Assembly (NCBI RefSeq): GCF_000934755.1
Contig: NZ_KN882179.1
Location: forward strand, 85,620 to 145,286
Reading direction: 5' to 3'
Origin: Desulfonatronovibrio magnus
Lineage (GTDB): Bacteria > Desulfobacterota > Desulfovibrionia > Desulfovibrionales > Desulfonatronovibrionaceae
Length of the DNA stretch: 59,667 bases
A program made the position numbers and the translations under genes. The notes beneath the pieces are model-generated. The model worked only from the letters and a program-made list of their open reading frames with translations, did not search any database and was not told the origin of the DNA. Of the stretch, positions 175-56,136 are shown one piece after another; positions within the stretch are counted from its first letter, which is position 1, and each line of letters opens with the position of its first letter.

Positions 175-678
175 TTATTGCATAAAGTACTGGTTAAGCT
201 GATCATTGCTGAACTCATCACATTGGGTAAAAGCTCCACCCACCTTTATGGTGTAATCATTTTTCTCCACATGCTTAAGATTACACTTGAACCTTGATAA
301 AACTTCTGTATCAGTAAGATACAAAATAACCTCGAAATCTGAATTGCTTCGTATAAATTCGATTTTCCCATCCCTGTCAATAGGAAAGGCCAGTCGTGTT
401 CCGCCAATGGAAATATCCAGCACAGTTGTTGAATAATACCTGCCCACGTTGGCTTCTTGTGATTTTTCGTAGACCATGGCTGGTATAACCACATTTTTTC
501 TTTTAAATTTTCTTTTTTCGTCAGTTATGGGACTGTTCACTTCATTATCCTCAATATATGTTCTAAGTATCTGATCCAGCAATGTACTTAACCGTAATTC
601 GCTTCTCTTAGCCACAGATTCTAATCGATCCAGTATTTTTTCATCAATATAAACTTCTTTTTTAAGGCTATTGGACAT
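175..678 (-). CDS. PilZ domain protein with N-terminal ribbon-helix-helix-like segment
   Basis: 167 residues. Residues 1-45 (KKEVYIDEKILDRLES..., then a helix ending RTYIED) look like a ribbon-helix-helix (CopG/MetJ-type) DNA-binding or dimerisation unit. Residues 54-165 form a PilZ domain with both c-di-GMP-binding motifs: RxxxR at R56-R60 and DxSxxG at D88-G93. PilZ domains with these residues bind cyclic di-GMP, so the protein is probably a c-di-GMP effector; the N-terminal part suggests it could act on DNA, which is inference. The ATG is preceded by a good AGGAG ribosome binding site at about 686-690. It stands alone, with the heptamer tract downstream and a long repeat-rich gap upstream. 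Two GGDEF proteins in the same window could supply the ligand. Confidence 0.85.
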   Translation of the reverse strand: MSNSLKKEVYIDEKILDRLESVAKRSELRLSTLLDQILRTYIEDNEVNSPITDEKRKFKRKNVVIPAMVYEKSQEANVGRYYSTTVLDISIGGTRLAFPIDRDGKIEFIRSNSDFEVILYLTDTEVLSRFKCNLKHVEKNDYTIKVGGAFTQCDEFSNDQLNQYFMQ

Positions 679-747
679 TTTAGTTGCTCCTGTTAAAATA
701 ATTATTATAAATTGAAGATTATTCAGAGTGTATCAATTAAAACACAT

Positions 748-1207
748 ATAAGCTCCTCACCCGGGGGGGACCGGGACCGAACTAGCGAGTAACTTGAAAT
801 AGCCTTAGCGCGTTTGAGATTGCCGCGCTCGAAGACTCGCTCGCAATGACACCTGAGCTGTCAGGGATGTGGTTGCTCAAAACCTGTCACCCACAAGTGA
901 GCCTAAGCGACCGAAGCAATCTGTAAGGTAAAACCATAATGCTCTGAATTTATTACCAATTTGGCTTTAGATACTTAGAAGTAACTACAGTTTTATGTCA
1001 ATTATTTAAGAAGGTTGATGTTACAAAGCTCTGTCATATTTGGAGCACAGCACGGTGTACTCCTCTCCTTAGTTAAGGAGGGGTTGGGGGTGGTTTGATC
1101 TAAATGTTTACTTCCTTATTGCTCTTATTCCCTGGCTGGAGCCTGGGAACGAAGGGTATAAGTTACTCACAGGTTCGGTCACGGTCCGCCTGGGTGAGGA
1201 GCTTAAA
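748..1207. repeat. Interspersed repeat with inverted ends, copy 1
   Basis: The left end (AAGCTCCTCACCC, 749-761, continuing to GAGTAACTT near 796) reappears inverted at 1157-1207 (GTTACTCACAGGTTCGGTC... GGGTGAGGAGCTT). The left 240 bp also matches 57381-57616 and, inverted, 7115-7345. The core carries the GATTGCCGCGCTCGAAGACTCGCTCGCAATGAC palindrome type (split here at 819-850), which resembles REP-like intergenic motifs seen in many bacteria. Confidence 0.7.
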
Positions 1208-1438
1208 AATAATATCACTTTTTAATTGTGCAGACTTTTGCATGTAGCACAGACAGTGAATCAGTCCTTGTGACAACCAATTATACCCAATAGTTTACGT
1301 ATAATGTGTATCGTTTACTGTATTTAACGAAAGCTCATTGTTTATCTATGTACAAAGATTATGCCACCATTTTGATGCTAATGCCTGTGTGTGGTAAGCA
1401 GTGAAAAGATCAAGCATTATTGAACAATAGTTGTCCAC

Positions 1439-1587
1439 TGGAGCATTACACGTTTCTGAAAAATCAATTGGAAACAGCCTTGAAATCAGGGACAGTCCCT
1501 GTCTCAAGCCGCAATAATCAGGTTTAAACCCCAAAATTTCTGTGACATACAACTCATTTTTATTGTTTAGAAACACGCAATGATCAC
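1439..1587. mobile_element. Family 1 miniature element, divergent copy
   Basis: Begins TGGAGCATTACACGTTTCTGA and ends TTTAGAAACACGCAATGATCAC, a decayed form of the inverted ends seen intact at 22338-22518. The interior (AATCAGGGACAGTCCCTG, AACCCCAAAATTTCTGTGACATAC) matches the other copies in inverted orientation. No target duplication is visible. Confidence 0.65.
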
Positions 1588-2471
1588 CGTCAGTCAATTT
1601 CCGTGATACAACATGCAAATGGTTTACGATTACTGTATTTTCAGAATAATCAGAATTTTCAGGATTTCCGAAATTTTCAGAGCATGCTATAGATGGAGGG
1701 CTTTTTTTAAAATGAAACTAATGAACTGTCACAATTTTAGTTTATTAACATATTTTAACAATACTGGCTTCCAATTTTAATATTTATCTCCATAGACCTT
1801 GTTCCTTAGATTCCAACCCTGGAACAAAGGACAGGATTCACTTTCCTGTTTAGTATTACGAGCCATACTGCTGGGGAACATATATGTAACTTAGGCGGGC
1901 TTTGCCCGCAACCCAATATAAAAAAGGATCGTTAAGTTGGGGCGATAGACATAATTTTCAGACTGAAGGCAGAAGGCTGAAGAATAGGGATCTTGAATGT
2001 TATTGCTCTCGTCAGGGTTAAAAATTTTTTTTGATTTTTTCTACAGGATTGAGGCAGTAAATAACTAATATGTGCTTGATTATGCGTCTCGTGTTCAAGC
2101 CTGCTACCGTTACCTTTTCAGAAGCATACAATGTCACACCATGCAAAATATCATTCTACTTATGGCTCAGGGCTTGCAGTATTAATCACAGGTATCAGCT
2201 GGAAACAGACATTTTAGAGCTTAATTAACCCTAAAGCGAAACTTATAATCGATTATATTTGTTCAAAAAAACAGATAGTTACAAGCTGTTTGATATAGCA
2301 ATTTTTGGGTTAAAAGCTGTATATTATGGTTTGGCACAGGGACTGTCCTGCTACAGGACTGCCCCCAGTAGACTGCTCAGGACCCCATAATGGTTCCAGC
2401 CTGCCCTGTAGAAACTTACAAACAGCCAATCAATTACTTTTTTAACAAACTTTATTGAACAGGATATACCT

Positions 2472-2729
2472 ATGGATAAGCGCTATCTTTTGATGAAATG
2501 CCGTGCTAATCAAAACCCTTTGCCAATTGATTGCTTTACGGCAAACAGTATGACTGAAGCACAGGAAGCGTTGAAATGGCTTCGAGAACATCATCCGGAC
2601 CGGCATGAATTACAACTCGAACCAGGGGAATTTTTTGAAATTTTAGTGGAGGAACATTGCCCCAGCAACCAATGGCAGGAAATCATGGCGGAGTTGGAAC
2701 ATGCCCGCAAGAAAAGGAAATCATCATAA
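2472..2729 (+). CDS. Small protein of unknown function
   Basis: 85 residues, begins MDKRYLLMKCRANQNPLPIDCF and has a basic tail (ARKKRKSS). It has no signal peptide or membrane segment and I recognise no family. The acidic centre (LEPGEFFEILVEE) and predicted helices suggest a small soluble protein. The start is the first ATG after an AT-rich leader, with a weak AGGATA ribosome binding site. It is convergent with the SAF-domain dehydrogenase gene; two hairpins lie between them. Coding status rests on length, a plausible start and balanced composition only. Confidence 0.5.
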   Translation: MDKRYLLMKCRANQNPLPIDCFTANSMTEAQEALKWLREHHPDRHELQLEPGEFFEILVEEHCPSNQWQEIMAELEHARKKRKSS

Positions 2730-2749
2730 TCATATGCGAGTTCAAGGCA

Positions 2750-2805
2750 TGCTCATAAATTGATATGAGCATCAAGTACCCGTCAGGCGGGACCACCTGA
2801 CGGGT
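2750..2805. terminator. Two hairpins between convergent genes
   Basis: Hairpin 1 pairs TGCTCATA (2750-2757) with TATGAGCA (2764-2771). Hairpin 2 pairs ACCCGTCAGG (2778-2787) with CCTGACGGGT (2796-2805), a ten-base-pair stem. They lie between convergent genes ending at 2729 and 2844, where a bidirectional terminator is expected, but there is no long T run. Confidence 0.45.
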
Positions 2806-2843
2806 TAACTGCTGAGAAAGGATATATTATAAATGCCAGTACT

Positions 2844-4193
2844 TTATACCTGAGCCTGATTTGATGCAAAACCATGGTCTGGAATCTTTTTACCAGGCAT
2901 GGCTCTATCGGACGCCAGTCCAAAATGCACAATCTGCTCCTGCCTGAGCCTGTCTCCAAGTCTTCCTTCAGGGACATGAACATCATGATAAGTTATGGCT
3001 TGATCTTTTTTTATGTCTCTCTTGAGCCAGCAACCTCTGGAAAGCCCCATGGGCAAGAGGTTTTCCCCCATGGCTACAGGCATATTTTCCAGGACTCCGT
3101 AAGTGTCAAACCCCCCAATTCCATCCAGAATATCACCAGCCTTGAGCTCTCTCTTGGCAATAGTTATAACCTCACAGACAGGACCTGCCAGCGGGGTAAT
3201 ACTGGCATCATTGAAAAGTACAGCCCTGGCTGCTGTCAACGGTGCCTCAATTGATGGCAGGTGATAAGGAATATAAAAGACATAAACAGGCCCTGTTCCC
3301 ATCTTATAATAATCCATATATTGCCTCATCACAGGACTGTCGTTATATCCCAGCACAAAAACTCCCGGGGGATCAGCACCCAGGATGTAGTCAACCAGAC
3401 CATGCTCCAGCATTTCATCTAAAGGAAACAGGTGTGCTGCCTGAGATACATGAAAACATTTGGGGCCGTGCATGCCTCTTTTGGCACATTTAAACCCAGT
3501 AGCATTGGCTACTACTGCCATTTCAAATGATATCTTTGTGCCATCAGCAAAGGATGTGACCATTCTTGGTTTCTGCCTGAATTTTTCAGCATAGGACTTT
3601 TGAGTGTCAGGATTTCGATATGGATCATGCAATCCCTTGATATTACCAGCCAGAACTGGTCTGCAACCAATGGTCTTCACATAACGCAAAAGATTCATAA
3701 TCACCCCGGGCTGATCTCCGTCGCAATTACTGATGATCACATCTGCCCTGTCAGCATAGACTTTGAGAATAGGACCTACCGTGGCATCGAGTTCAGCATT
3801 CATGAGTATGACATGTTTTCCATGATCCATGGCTTTCAAACAAATATCAGCGGCAAAATCAATCTCACCGGTAGCTTCCATTATTACGTCTATACCCTGA
3901 GCCATGCAAATTATTTCCGGATTGTCTGTAATACAGAAGTAGTTTGAAGCCAGGGCACTTTCTAACTGTTCCAGGTTATCCACAACTACCGGATCTTTAA
4001 TTCCAGCCAGCTCATAAGCATATGCTGCTGATGAAATATGCCTGTTAAAAACTGCGACAGCACGCATACCCCTGATGGACCTCTCTATTTGGAAAACCAG
4101 TCCTCTGCCCATATACCCTGCGCCAATTATACCTACCTTGACAGGGTTATTTTCTTTAAGACGATTATTTAAGGCTGTGTCCAGAATTATCAT
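2844..4193 (-). CDS. NAD(P)-dependent dehydrogenase with C-terminal SAF domain
   Basis: 449 residues. The N-terminal Rossmann fold has the GxGxxG motif GAGYMG at residues 24-29, followed by a homoserine-dehydrogenase-like core. The C-terminal part (about 345-430, IAKRELKAGDILDGIGGF... LSRGCWLKRDIKKDQAITYHDV) looks like a SAF domain of the type found in antifreeze-like and sialate-synthase proteins. Family members often lie in surface polysaccharide clusters and are annotated as SAF-domain oxidoreductases or homoserine-dehydrogenase-like proteins; the exact substrate is not known to me. It is the last gene of the minus-strand CDP-sugar group and is separated from the epimerase gene by 160 bp that includes an inverted repeat. 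A role in finishing a CDP-linked sugar, or its branched side chain, is inference. Confidence 0.75.
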   Translation of the reverse strand: MIILDTALNNRLKENNPVKVGIIGAGYMGRGLVFQIERSIRGMRAVAVFNRHISSAAYAYELAGIKDPVVVDNLEQLESALASNYFCITDNPEIICMAQGIDVIMEATGEIDFAADICLKAMDHGKHVILMNAELDATVGPILKVYADRADVIISNCDGDQPGVIMNLLRYVKTIGCRPVLAGNIKGLHDPYRNPDTQKSYAEKFRQKPRMVTSFADGTKISFEMAVVANATGFKCAKRGMHGPKCFHVSQAAHLFPLDEMLEHGLVDYILGADPPGVFVLGYNDSPVMRQYMDYYKMGTGPVYVFYIPYHLPSIEAPLTAARAVLFNDASITPLAGPVCEVITIAKRELKAGDILDGIGGFDTYGVLENMPVAMGENLLPMGLSRGCWLKRDIKKDQAITYHDVHVPEGRLGDRLRQEQIVHFGLASDRAMPGKKIPDHGFASNQAQV

Positions 4194-4239
4194 AATTACA
4201 CCACGCTATTGTTAATTGTAATTGTTTTGACTTTTACAT

Positions 4240-4335
4240 GCGTTACAAGGGCTGGCTCTCCCGGGATCCACATGCCTCATAAAAGACACGTTTAAAACAT
4301 CGGTTATTGCTCAAGTGGATCCCGGAGTGCCTGTT
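4240..4335. repeat. Inverted repeat around CCGGGATCCACWTG
   Basis: CCCGGGATCCACATG (about 4260-4274) pairs with CAAGTGGATCCCGG (about 4312-4326), leaving a loop of about 40 bases. The right arm with its flank (GGTTATTGCTCAAGTGG...) recurs inverted near 51195-51230 and more weakly near 57622-57652, so this is an interspersed repeat and not only a terminator. Confidence 0.5.
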
Positions 4336-4354
4336 CACTGCCTTCTTAAAATGG

Positions 4355-4897
4355 CTAAACTATTTCGTTGATTTTATAATCAGGATATGAACTGTCCTTC
4401 TTGCTGATCAATGATACAGGCTCGGGCCAGCTGATTTTAAAGAGCGGGTCATCCCAACGGACACCTGCTTCATGGTCAGGACTGTAAAATTCTGAAACTT
4501 GATAAAATACTTCAGAGTTATCCTTAAGGGTCAGATAGCCATGAGCAAAGCCTTTGGGAGCATAAATCATCTTACGGTTGTCATGGCTGAGAGTTGTTCC
4601 GAACCACTTGAGGTATGTTGCTGAGTCAGACCGAAGGTCAACAAGCACATCAAAAACTGCCCCGCTGGTACAGCGAATTATCTTGACCTCGCCATATGGA
4701 GATTTCTGAAAATGCAACCCTCTAAGAGTTCCTCTCTTAAGATTAAACGAAATATTGCATTGAACAACATCCGGGATAAGCCCGATCTTCTCCAATTCCC
4801 TGCGACAAAATACCCGGGCAAAAAAACCCCGTTCATCATTTATTCTTTCGGGAGTAATTATAAATGCGCCATTAAGGCTGGTTGTGATGATTTTCAT
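4355..4897 (-). CDS. dTDP-4-dehydrorhamnose 3,5-epimerase-like sugar epimerase (RmlC/RfbC family)
   Basis: 180 residues from the ATG at 4897 (MKIITTSLNGAFIITPE). A longer reading frame exists upstream, but it runs through the rfbG tail and lacks a domain. The cupin fold of the RmlC family is clear: N-terminal ERGFFARVFC, the LRGLHFQ motif with the catalytic-type His62, then KIIRCTSGAVFDVLVDLR, and the YAPKGFAHGYL stretch. Tyrosines at 132 and 138 are candidates for the catalytic acid. In this neighbourhood (rfbF and rfbG immediately upstream) the substrate is probably CDP-4-keto-6-deoxyglucose and not the dTDP form; this is inference from context. The start overlaps the end of rfbG by 26 bp, so the two are likely translated together. 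Confidence 0.85.
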   Translation of the reverse strand: MKIITTSLNGAFIITPERINDERGFFARVFCRRELEKIGLIPDVVQCNISFNLKRGTLRGLHFQKSPYGEVKIIRCTSGAVFDVLVDLRSDSATYLKWFGTTLSHDNRKMIYAPKGFAHGYLTLKDNSEVFYQVSEFYSPDHEAGVRWDDPLFKISWPEPVSLISKKDSSYPDYKINEIV

Positions 4898-7345: not shown

Positions 7346-7704
7346 GGTTACAACTGGCAGCTGGTTTGCTGACACAGTCTGCCTTGAATTTCTTATCACA
7401 GTTCAGCCCATTTCTGAGGAAAGCAGAGGACAGGAACTCCGGACATTACATGAGCAAATCCGATGTTTTATACGTCTAATTTTTGAGTAAAACAGGCTCC
7501 CGAAGAGCGGAGCATTATGCATTTTTTGAAAGTCAATCAGGGCCAGCTCTCGTTCCAGGATCTCACTGAAATTATCTGATCAAACCATATATAATAATCC
7601 AGTTACTCCGAATTTATCAGTAAAAAATCCATAAATTTTGGATACAGGAGTATTAATTATTTGGAATTTCACTCCAAAGGCTACTGATAAAGGACCATTC
7701 AGCA

Positions 7705-9354: not shown

Positions 9355-9559
9355 CAACAAGAACATTGTCCTTTCACGTGGAGCATCAGTTCAGGCACAA
9401 TCAAGGAATTCTGAAGCTTTTCGTCCGTGAGGTTCGAGACCAAACCTTCGAGCAACTAAAGCGGGTTTCCTTTACGAAAATTGGGACTCCAATGTGCCTG
9501 TCCCCTGACAACCTTAAAAATGGCTCAAGTAATAAGATTTTTGGTCAACTGGAGGAGAT

Positions 9560-18524: not shown

Positions 18525-18987
18525 AATTAGTAACTTACTCCTGAAACCCAGTCACAAATAAAAGAAAACTTGAATCGCAAAGGAGCGAAGGACTCAAAGT
18601 TCAAGACAATAAAGAAGATATTTTTGAATACCGGGCATCGGTTTTCAAAAAGGCTGCCTTTTCATTTGCCGCCTGCCTTGTTAAACAGACGTAGTCTCCG
18701 TCGCAGGCGGGTTTAACTGGGTTCCCAAACAATGAAAAAAAACTCTTTCTTCCTTTGTGCCCTTTGCTTGCCCTGTTAAACAACGCTGAAATTGCTCCTG
18801 TGCAGCAGGGTTTGTCTAAGCGTTTTGAGCTTGCCCGGCCTGCCCCGTAAAACCGGGGTCCCCCCTGGGGTGTTTTACTGGGGTTGAATAGAGCTTCGGT
18901 CTACGGCAAAGCCGTATTCAACTGGCTAAATCTTGGAACGGGCGGTTAAAATATCTTTTCTGGGTTGTGTGCACAGCCCGCATTAGC
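18525..18987. repeat. Long interspersed repeat, copy 1 (uninterrupted target)
   Basis: Matches 55651-56136 over several blocks: TTACTCCTGAAACCC, CTTGAATCGCAAAG, GACAATAAAGAAGATATT, CCGTAAAACCGGGGTCCCCC, CTTCGGTCTACGGCAAAGCC and GGGCGGTTAAAATATCTTTT. This copy has about 115 extra bases in the middle (18623-18760), while the other carries a family 2 miniature element. It therefore shows the empty insertion site (GAAAACTTGAATCG). Confidence 0.8.
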
Positions 18988-32354: not shown

Positions 32355-32490
32355 GTAATAGTTTCGCATTTTTTAGGATAGCAGAGGACAGGCACCCCAG
32401 CACTTATTTTTTGCCGTAATAATCATTATTTAAAAAATAAGGACTGAGAGAACCAGTTCCCGTGTCACATGCAAAGGGCTAAACTATTAC
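32355..32490. mobile_element. Family 2 miniature element
   Basis: 136 bp, ends GTAATAGTTTCGC and GGGCTAAACTATTAC. Flanks TGTTGATA (32347-32354) and TGTAGATA (32491-32498) agree at seven of eight bases, an 8-bp target duplication. The interior shows the shared GGACAGGCACCCCAGC and AAATAAGGACTGAGAG arms. It separates the GT4 gene (start 22 bp away) from the heparinase-like gene. Confidence 0.85.
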
Positions 32491-35787: not shown

Positions 35788-35928
35788 GTATTAGTTTAGC
35801 CCTTTTCTAAGGTAAACAGGGGACAGGCACCCCAGCCCTTGTTTTTTGTTGATCTAAAACACAGACTTAATAAAACAAGGACTGGGAGAGCCAATCCCCG
35901 TGCCACATGCAAATGGCTAAACTGTTAC
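35788..35928. mobile_element. Family 2 miniature element
   Basis: 141 bp, ends GTATTAGTTTAGCC and GGCTAAACTGTTAC. Flanks GTCATTTG (35780-35787) and GTCATTTT (35929-35936) agree at seven of eight bases. Interior palindrome arms CAGCCCTTGTTTT and AAAACAAGGACTGG. It fits neatly between the beta-helix stop (35940) and the glycosyltransferase start (35750). Confidence 0.88.
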
Positions 35929-51160: not shown

Positions 51161-51310
51161 GTAATAGTTTAGACCTTTTTTATGGAAACAGGAAACAGGA
51201 GCTCCGGGCCCCACTTAAGCAATAACCCATGTGTTAATCGTGCCTATTCTGAGGCACGTAGGTTCGGGAGGAACCATTCCCTGTGTTACATCACATGGAT
51301 TATACATTGC
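51161..51310. mobile_element. Family 2 miniature element, old copy
   Basis: About 150 bp. The left end GTAATAGTTTAGACC matches the family; the right end (ACATGGATTATACATTGC) is decayed. Flanks GTTGTTTT and GATTTTTT agree at six of eight bases. The interior includes GCTCCGGGCCCCACTTAAGCAATAACCC (split 51200-51227), which matches the inverted repeat near 4300-4335. Confidence 0.5.
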
Positions 51311-55650: not shown

Positions 55651-56136
55651 TTTAGTAGTTTACTCCTGAAACCCTGTCGTAAAAACAAGAAAATTTGTAA
55701 TAGTTTAGCCCTTTTCTAAGGAAAGCAGGGGACAGGCACCCCAGCCCTTGTTTTTTGTTGATGTAAAACACAGACTTAATAAAACAAGGGCTGGAAGAGC
55801 CAGTCCCCGTGCCACATGCAAATGGATAAACTATTACGAAAATTTGAATCGCAAAGACGCGAAGAACTCAAAGTTAAAGACAATAAAGAAGATATTTCTT
55901 ACTTTGCGCCCTTTCCTGCCCGGTTAAACAACGCTGAAAGCGTTCCTGCGCAGCAGGGTTTAACTGGGCGTCTTGAGCTCGCCCGGCTTGCCCCGTAAAA
56001 CCGGGGTCCCCCCTGGTGTTTTTTACTGGGGTTGAATAGACCTTCGGTCTACGGCAAAGCCATATTCAGGGTAAATCTTCCAACGGGCGGTTAAAATATC
56101 TTTTTTGTTGGGTTGTGGTCACAGCCCTCATTAGGA
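55651..56136. repeat. Long interspersed repeat, copy 2 (interrupted)
   Basis: Matches 18525-18987 from TTTACTCCTGAAACCC to CACAGCCCTCATTAG. Split by a family 2 element at 55697-55837. It lacks about 115 bases present in the middle of copy 1. Shares GCAGCAGGGTTTAACTGGGC-like text, CCGTAAAACCGGGGTCCCCC and CTTCGGTCTACGGCAAAGCC. Confidence 0.85.
55697..55837. mobile_element. Family 2 miniature element nested in the long repeat, perfect target duplication
   Basis: 141 bp with ends GTAATAGTTTAGCC and GGATAAACTATTAC. The 8-bp direct repeat GAAAATTT flanks it on both sides (55689-55696 and 55838-55845). The uninterrupted sister repeat at 18525-18987 has GAAAACTT once at that place, so the empty site is known. 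Interior arms CAGCCCTTGTTTT and AAAACAAGGGCTGG form a long hairpin. Confidence 0.95.

What the first reader, a model, noticed from the sequence alone, without database searches (positions are those of the whole stretch)
55689..55845. Family 2: 141-bp GTAA-ended element with an empty-site control inside the same window
Copies at 32355, 35788, 51161 and 55697 have ends GTAATAGTTTAGCC/GGCTAAACTATTAC. The 55697 copy is flanked by GAAAATTT on both sides and interrupts a long repeat whose uninterrupted sister at 18525 has the site once (GAAAACTT). The 35788 and 32355 copies have 8-bp duplications with one mismatch each. Ends starting GTAA and an 8-bp duplication are properties of the IS66 family (established knowledge), so this is probably an IS66-driven miniature element.
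Basis: partly seen in the sequence, partly recalled or inferred. Interest (0 to 1): 0.75.

Follow-up and report, generated by a model that had tools for sequence, protein, structure and literature searches.

The report
Miniature elements moved by IS66 transposases
The repeat is a real, abundant miniature jumping element that carries no gene of its own and whose ends match those of larger IS66-type transposons, seen in pieces in related bacteria, that also carry a gene related to an anti-phage defence protein.

Summary
Confirmed; ordinary in kind, with an informative partner. The 141-bp element at 55697-55837 is a MITE. The own genome holds 199 exact 14-base ends against 0 for the reversed pattern, hence at least 100 elements. 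Of 108 complete copies measured in own and related genomes, 69 have exact and 19 one-mismatch 8-bp duplications; swapped flanks give 8 exact in 4002. A sister type with ends GTATCTGTTTAGCG shares core and duplication length.

IS66 is supported. In relatives, ends matching 17 of 18 bases bound long elements: DruA-like start at one side (12 ends), IS66 transposase C-terminus at the other; one contig reads end, druA, start of tnpC. No contig holds a whole partner, and none with these ends was found in the own genome, whose DruA-IS66 element ends GTAAGCCCTCACAGGG. A published ISBst12-group IS66 element has similar ends (GTAACTGCTCAGCA) and an 8-bp repeat (PMC12898284, passages). The less ordinary part is the recurrent DruA gene inside IS66 elements.

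The parts
55697..55837 (+). 141-bp miniature element (type A), terminal repeats GTAATAGTTTAGCC / GTAATAGTTTATCC
   Evidence: folds as one long hairpin, z -8.1
55689..55696 (.). left target-site duplication GAAAATTT
   Evidence: L001
55838..55845 (.). right target-site duplication GAAAATTT
   Evidence: L001
18527..18623 (+). unoccupied sister of the target repeat; the site GAAAACTT occurs once at 18564-18571
   Evidence: BLAST; (joined flanks of L001 span it at 87.6%)
35788..35928 (+). second 141-bp copy (93.6% identical); flanks GTCATTTG / GTCATTTT
   Evidence: L012
32355..32490 (+). diverged copy (77% identical, 136 bp); flanks TGTTGATA / TGTAGATA
51161..51310 (+). degenerate copy, 150 bp; right end eroded; flanks GTTGTTTT / GATTTTTT (2 mismatches)
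4218..4366 (-). degenerate 151-type copy (149 bp, 79% to the 151-bp query)
   Evidence: (L060)
7400..7440 (+). single left arm or remnant (85% over 41 bp)
   Evidence: E 2e-8
9494..9534 (-). possible single arm or remnant (79% over 42 bp)
   Evidence: E 0.002

Best explanation
It is a gene-less miniature transposable element (MITE) mobilised in trans by an IS66-family transposase of the kind without tnpA and tnpB (ISBst12-like). The partner transposon is built as terminal repeat, a DruA-like gene (PF14236, DUF4338), tnpC (IS66 DDE transposase), terminal repeat. The transposase binds the roughly 18-bp ends GTAAYAGTTTAGCSNTTT, moves the short hairpin-like DNA and leaves 8-bp direct repeats of an AT-rich target. 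Shown: copy number, ends, duplications, empty sites, and the match of the ends to those of the long elements. Inferred: that this transposase acts on the MITE, that DruA takes part, that the pieces seen in several genomes make one element, and that the partner was lost from, or is missing in, this assembly.
For: Duplications: 69 of 108 copies exact and 19 with one mismatch; swapped-flank control 8 exact, 56 with at most one mismatch, of 4002. In the pre-filter set of 113, exact repeats of length 6, 9 or 10 occur 0 times and of length 7 once. Empty sites: 17 of 88 joined flanks have an uninterrupted homologue in the fetched DNA, 16 without one self-overlap (L075); in these 16 the site differs by 0 bases in 3, 1 in 4, 2 in 5, and is gapped in 4. 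Partner: among 348 genomes of the order the end pattern occurs in 12 (reversed control: 4 hits in all). In G018 5 of 5 matches, G014 1 of 1, G037 3 of 5 and G029 1 of 3 lie 84-96 bp before a DruA-like start; two more such ends, in G063 and G060, were reached through DruA: 12 ends that I classed as DruA-side, 83-96 bp. The other two ends in G037 and one in G029 carry a transposase C-terminus: PF03050 E 1.7e-20 for G029, G037 by eye. L278 (G063) reads end, druA (PF14236 E 4e-29), zf-IS66 domain (E 6e-8) in one contig. The first 18 bases of the window's copy match the G018, G029 and G037 ends in 17 of 18 and G014 in 16; the G018 18-mer itself stands at MITE ends in G009 and G006. A 230-bp mini-element in G059 has GTAATAGTTTAGCGCTTT at both ends and exact flanks CAATACAT. 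A 66-bp mini-element in G029 matches the tnpC end of the long element over 52 bp at 92%. Published ISBst12-group ISDge4: ends GTGACTACTCAGCA / GTAACTGCTCAGCA, repeat CCTCGATG after an observed transposition (PMC12898284, passages).
Against: No complete partner in any single contig; partner copies break at contig ends, as collapsed repeats do, and a search with one end found no inner contig. In the own genome (97.5% complete) the one PF03050 match and three DruA matches belong to an element whose visible ends are GTAAGCCCTCACAGGG. Beyond the outer 18-19 bases the MITE types A, 151-bp and C match none of the partner ends, apart from 10-base chance-level hits. Only 3 of the 18 stretches upstream of DruA relatives printed (those at 61-100% identity to the query) show these ends; 5 are cut short by contig ends, one has the own-genome end, and the rest lack them. 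Of the 12 DruA-side ends, five show only 3-11 residues before the contig ends, and the 95-residue DruA N-terminus has no Pfam match on its own. Type C starts GTAT. The 66-bp G029 mini-element has no matching flanks. Another IS66 element is reported with ends GTCTGTGATTAGCGGTCG (PMC10017437, passages), so the end motif is not uniform in IS66. No transposition was observed.
Confidence: 0.86

Rival explanations
1. A MITE of another DDE family that also makes 8-bp duplications (ISL3, IS1595, IS256, ISAs1 and the like; target lengths recalled), the resemblance to IS66 being superficial.
For: Type C ends start GTAT; no intact partner seen whole; G009 also holds DruA joined to what I take by recall to be an ISAs1-type transposase (L234).
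Against: The long elements found behind these ends carry DruA or IS66 TnpC (12 DruA-side ends, 3 TnpC-side ends); end motif and repeat length resemble ISDge4. The TIR-like match beside the G009 DruA element L234 stands before an element that starts CAGGGCC in three copies, so only GTATCTGTT precedes it there. No other transposase family was searched for genome-wide.
Confidence: 0.06
2. A REP/BIME-type palindrome spread by a RAYT (Y1) transposase, because the core contains GGGGACAGGCAC / GGGGACTGGCTC repeats.
For: Hairpin-like, many copies; strong fold (z -8.1, -7.1 and -6.6 for three strands tested).
Against: RAYT transposition is not expected to duplicate the target (recalled), whereas 88 of 108 copies have 8-bp repeats with at most one mismatch; the ends are those of an IS66-type element. 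I did not search for RAYT genes.
Confidence: 0.03
3. The MITE is moved by the DruA-IS66 element that is actually present in this genome (C48, C40, C33), despite its different ends.
For: It is the only IS66-like source found in the own genome.
Against: Its visible ends, GTAAGCCCTCACAGGG, share only the first four bases with the MITE and gave no match, while elements with 17 of 18 matching end bases exist in relatives.
Confidence: 0.05

Closest known systems
IS66 family, ISBst12 group (ISDge4 of Deinococcus geothermalis, PMC12898284, passages seen)
   Same: IS66 transposase without tnpA/tnpB, ends GTAAC(T/A)G(C/T)T(C/T)AGC, 8-bp duplication
   Different: The MITE has no gene; the partner carries an extra DruA-like gene; ISDge4 as described has a single transposase gene
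MITECca01 of Cardinium (IS982-driven; PMC9769881, passages seen)
   Same: Gene-less, IS-derived, many copies, shares the ends of an IS
   Different: Different transposase family; there intact copies of the parental IS are in the same genome, here none was found
Druantia protein DruA (PF14236 / DUF4338; described as a GNAT domain in PMC10853773, one passage seen)
   Same: The partner's first gene scores PF14236 at E 4e-29
   Different: It sits inside a transposon; PADLOC models do not match the G063 or Acidobacteria protein and match the own-genome one weakly (E 2.7e-5)

Membership tests
MITE | Short, multi-copy, too short to encode a transposase | tested here: met
   140-183 bp in the own genome; 199 exact ends
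MITE | Terminal inverted repeats plus target-site duplication of fixed length | tested here: met
   69 of 108 exact 8-bp, 19 one mismatch; lengths 6, 7, 9, 10: one case in 113
MITE | Ends shared with an autonomous element | tested here: met
   17 of 18 bases shared with G018, G029 and G037 ends, 16 with G014; partner known only in pieces, none found in the own genome
IS66 family (for the mobilising element) | DDE transposase TnpC (PF03050) between the ends | tested here: met
   PF03050 E 1.7e-20 at the G029 end; zf-IS66 E 6e-8 in G063; never whole in one contig
IS66 family (for the mobilising element) | Ends beginning GTAA | tested here: met
   Type A MITE, 3 of 3 TnpC-side and 11 of 12 DruA-side partner ends start GTAA; the exception, G060, is a broken copy with GTAT; type C MITE starts GTAT
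IS66 family (for the mobilising element) | 8-bp target duplication | tested here: inconclusive
   Clear for the MITEs and one G059 mini-element with the partner's ends; not measurable on the long partner, whose copies are cut by contig ends
IS66 family (for the mobilising element) | Accessory genes tnpA and tnpB (canonical group; absent in the ISBst12 group) | tested here: not met
   In L278 druA starts 84 bp inside the end and tnpC follows directly; fits an ISBst12-like group plus DruA
REP/BIME (RAYT) | No target duplication | tested here: not met
   8-bp duplications present
REP/BIME (RAYT) | RAYT gene in the genome | not tested
   RAYT genes were not searched for
Druantia defence system | DruA with the other Dru genes in a defence operon | not tested
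   Only DruA and its transposon neighbours were examined

The most novel reading that the evidence does not exclude
DruA-like proteins are a working part of many IS66-type transposons (and perhaps of ISAs1), so that the Druantia gene was drawn from, or shared with, transposon machinery. These DruA-IS66 transposons seeded large MITE families that keep one hairpin core while swapping ends (GTAAYAGTTTAGCC versus GTATCTGTTTAGCG) and a 31-bp module, which implies frequent exchange between copies or selection on the core.
Probability: 0.3. Interest if true: 0.62.

Novelty: new member of a known kind. Interest (0 to 1): 0.45.

Why it matters
It gives a well-measured IS66-type MITE family: at least 100 elements in one genome, duplications, empty sites, and partner ends in relatives. 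It also places DruA, known as an anti-phage protein, repeatedly inside IS66 transposons, which makes its role in transposition directly testable. The shared core under two kinds of ends is a natural experiment on how bacterial MITEs exchange parts.

Tried and rejected
The own-genome IS66 (C48, L031/L062) was tested first as the partner and rejected: its ends do not match. The nine-copy canonical IS66 of G009 has ends GTAAGCGTCC and was rejected. An IS66-DruA element in G006 (L243) lying between MITE ends looked like the partner, but on reading its ends it is another IS66-DruA element (ends GTAACTTCTCAATAG, repeat CAAAAACA) inserted into a 141-type MITE. Orphan MITE-like ends in L077, L061 and L114 proved to be MITEs interrupted by other sequence. 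The DruA element of G009 beside a TIR-like match (L234) starts with other bases in its other copies. A search with the G037 end found no contig with the partner's middle. The genome-contig scan with the DruA N-terminus found one distant relative (L202, Acidobacteria, 36%), and a scan of that contig for GTAA-type inverted ends gave nothing. Viral contigs gave no DruA relative and one end match inside what reads as a coding stretch. Plasmids gave two records with distant DruA relatives, one of them beside an integrase and an IS91 transposase, not IS66. Rfam had no match in the window. Flanks across contig ends in G037 (L173 ATATTTTA against L172, reverse-complemented, GTATTTTA, read) suggest an 8-bp repeat of the partner, but this is one pair of six with one mismatch and is not counted.

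Limits: own-genome searches scored only 40 of 275 and 40 of 282 first-look candidates. The copies measured came from loci fetched because they match the MITE or its ends; 5 of 113 with more than 3 end mismatches in total were dropped. Wrong end pairings were not hand-removed. Lists of end places are truncated by the tool (one search lists 11 of 177 for the own genome), so not every orphan end was read. The G174 match was fetched but not followed. Loci L165 and L168 repeat the first 94-95 bases of L166. Papers: apart from the passages named, only listings were seen; passages of PMC3281130 gave nothing used.

Full report
Observation. The 141-bp element, its GAAAATTT repeats and the empty sister site are as described.

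Copy number. The window is part of a 4.81-Mb genome in 134 contigs. Searches with the 141-bp copy and a 151-bp copy each scored 40 candidates out of 275 and 282. The exact 14-base ends GTAWYWGTTTAGCS occur 97+102 times in the own genome against 0 for the reversed pattern, so at least 100 elements if each has two ends. Related genomes G006, G009, G003 and G012 have 348, 81, 43 and 7, with one reversed-control hit among them, in G003.

Subtypes. In type A the lengths are about 141 and 172 bp with one middle and about 151 and 182 bp with another. The longer forms carry a module of about 31 bp at the same place of the arm; it was found 50 times, each in a MITE arm, and not elsewhere in the fetched DNA. 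A sister type C has ends GTATCTGTTTAGCG and the same GGGGACAGGCAC/GGGGACTGGCTC core. Median identity within five own-genome subfamilies is 94-97%.

Duplications. Type A in the own genome: 35 of 52 exact, 10 with one mismatch. Type C own: 11 of 13 exact, 2 with one mismatch. Relatives: A 3 of 9 exact and 1 with one mismatch; C 20 of 34 exact and 6 with one mismatch. Swapped flanks: 8 exact and 56 with at most one mismatch among 4002. The 69 exact 8-mers are AT-rich. Joined flanks of 88 copies found 17 uninterrupted homologues in the fetched DNA, one a self-overlap; in the other 16 the site is identical in 3, one base off in 4, two off in 5 and gapped in 4. This rules out chance and fits DDE-type transposition.

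Partner. PF03050 finds one IS66 transposase in the own genome, beside a DruA gene, with other ends. A pattern search over 348 genomes of the order found the MITE ends in 12, with 4 reversed-control hits in all. In G018, G014, G037 and G029 they stand before a DruA-like start; DruA hits in G063 and G060 added two more such ends. In the 12 ends classed as DruA-side the start lies 83-96 bp inside; five of them show only 3-11 residues before the contig ends. The G018 protein is 42% identical to the own-genome DruA over 77 positions, though its 95 residues alone match no Pfam family. Two ends in G037 and one in G029 have the same 18 bases with a transposase C-terminus inside: PF03050 for G029, G037 by eye. 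L278 (G063) links end, druA and the start of tnpC. More distant DruA relatives lack these ends: only 3 of 18 upstream stretches printed have them, 5 being cut short. The pieces come from several genomes and no whole copy was seen, so the full anatomy is an inference from overlapping parts.

How far the match goes. The first 18 bases of the window's copy match G018, G029 and G037 in 17 and G014 in 16; inside that, MITE types A, 151-bp and C match no partner end beyond 10-base hits. The large MITEs are therefore not shown to be simple deletion products of the partners found. By contrast the 66-bp G029 mini-element matches the tnpC end over 52 bp at 92%, though without matching flanks, and the 230-bp G059 element has the partner's ends and exact flanks CAATACAT.

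Published comparison. ISDge4, placed by its authors in the ISBst12 group of IS66, has ends GTGACTACTCAGCA/GTAACTGCTCAGCA and an 8-bp repeat after observed transposition (PMC12898284, passages). Another Deinococcus IS66 element is reported with ends GTCTGTGATTAGCGGTCG and 8-nt repeats (PMC10017437, passages), so ends vary within IS66. IS66 with 'miniature inverted-repeat' and 'MITE' gave 8 papers; I read passages of two and they do not describe an IS66-driven MITE; the other six I saw as listings. DruA with IS66 gave 0 papers; DUF4338 with transposase gave 2, one read in passages. The library holds open-licence papers only.

DruA in IS66 elements. Besides the partner, DruA sits with an IS66 transposase in the own genome, in G006, in a multi-copy G009 element and in an Acidobacteria contig as TnpB-DruA-TnpC. 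In one Thiodictyon plasmid a DruA match lies under a gene annotated as an ISAs1 transposase; in another it stands without IS66. I infer a recurrent accessory; its function here is not known.

Verdict. As a kind this is a known sort of element; the DruA link and the exchange of ends and modules over one core are the parts worth pursuing.

Noticed in passing
L014 1501-1672, L041 1441-1622, L068 599 and others: A module of about 31 bp (around CTTCCTGCCCGGAGGCATACAGCCCGGAG) sits at the same point of the arm in type A, the 151-bp subtype and type C MITEs; 50 times in a MITE arm, 0 elsewhere in the fetched DNA.
   Followed up: partly
L234 1462-1637, 5070-5246; L109 3576-3754, 5445-5506, 6803-6977; L124 828-1005; L114 7056-7158: A third MITE-like family in relatives G009 and G006 with ends GTAACCATTCAGG; 7 of the 20 pairs printed (22 found) have exact 8-bp repeats. 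No match in the window.
   Followed up: partly
L202 1315-4205: Acidobacteria contig with IS66 TnpB, DruA and TnpC in a row, followed by an ORF that by recall looks like a serine recombinase.
   Followed up: partly
L243 about 540-3164: An IS66-DruA element with ends GTAACTTCTCAATAG is inserted in a 141-type MITE, with repeat CAAAAACA.
   Followed up: yes
L077 about 845-1075, L061 about 1625-1935: Two MITEs of different type are interrupted after CTTARAAG by sequences that begin alike (CTCCTCAC, GTGAGTAACT) and end in AGTTACTT.
   Followed up: partly
L234 1727-3642; L285 2420-3754: DruA joined to a transposase that the Thiodictyon record calls ISAs1 (the G009 one named so by recall only); near-identical copies in G009.
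   Followed up: partly
L126, L129-L136: G009 holds nine near-identical canonical IS66 copies with ends GTAAGCGTCC.
   Followed up: no
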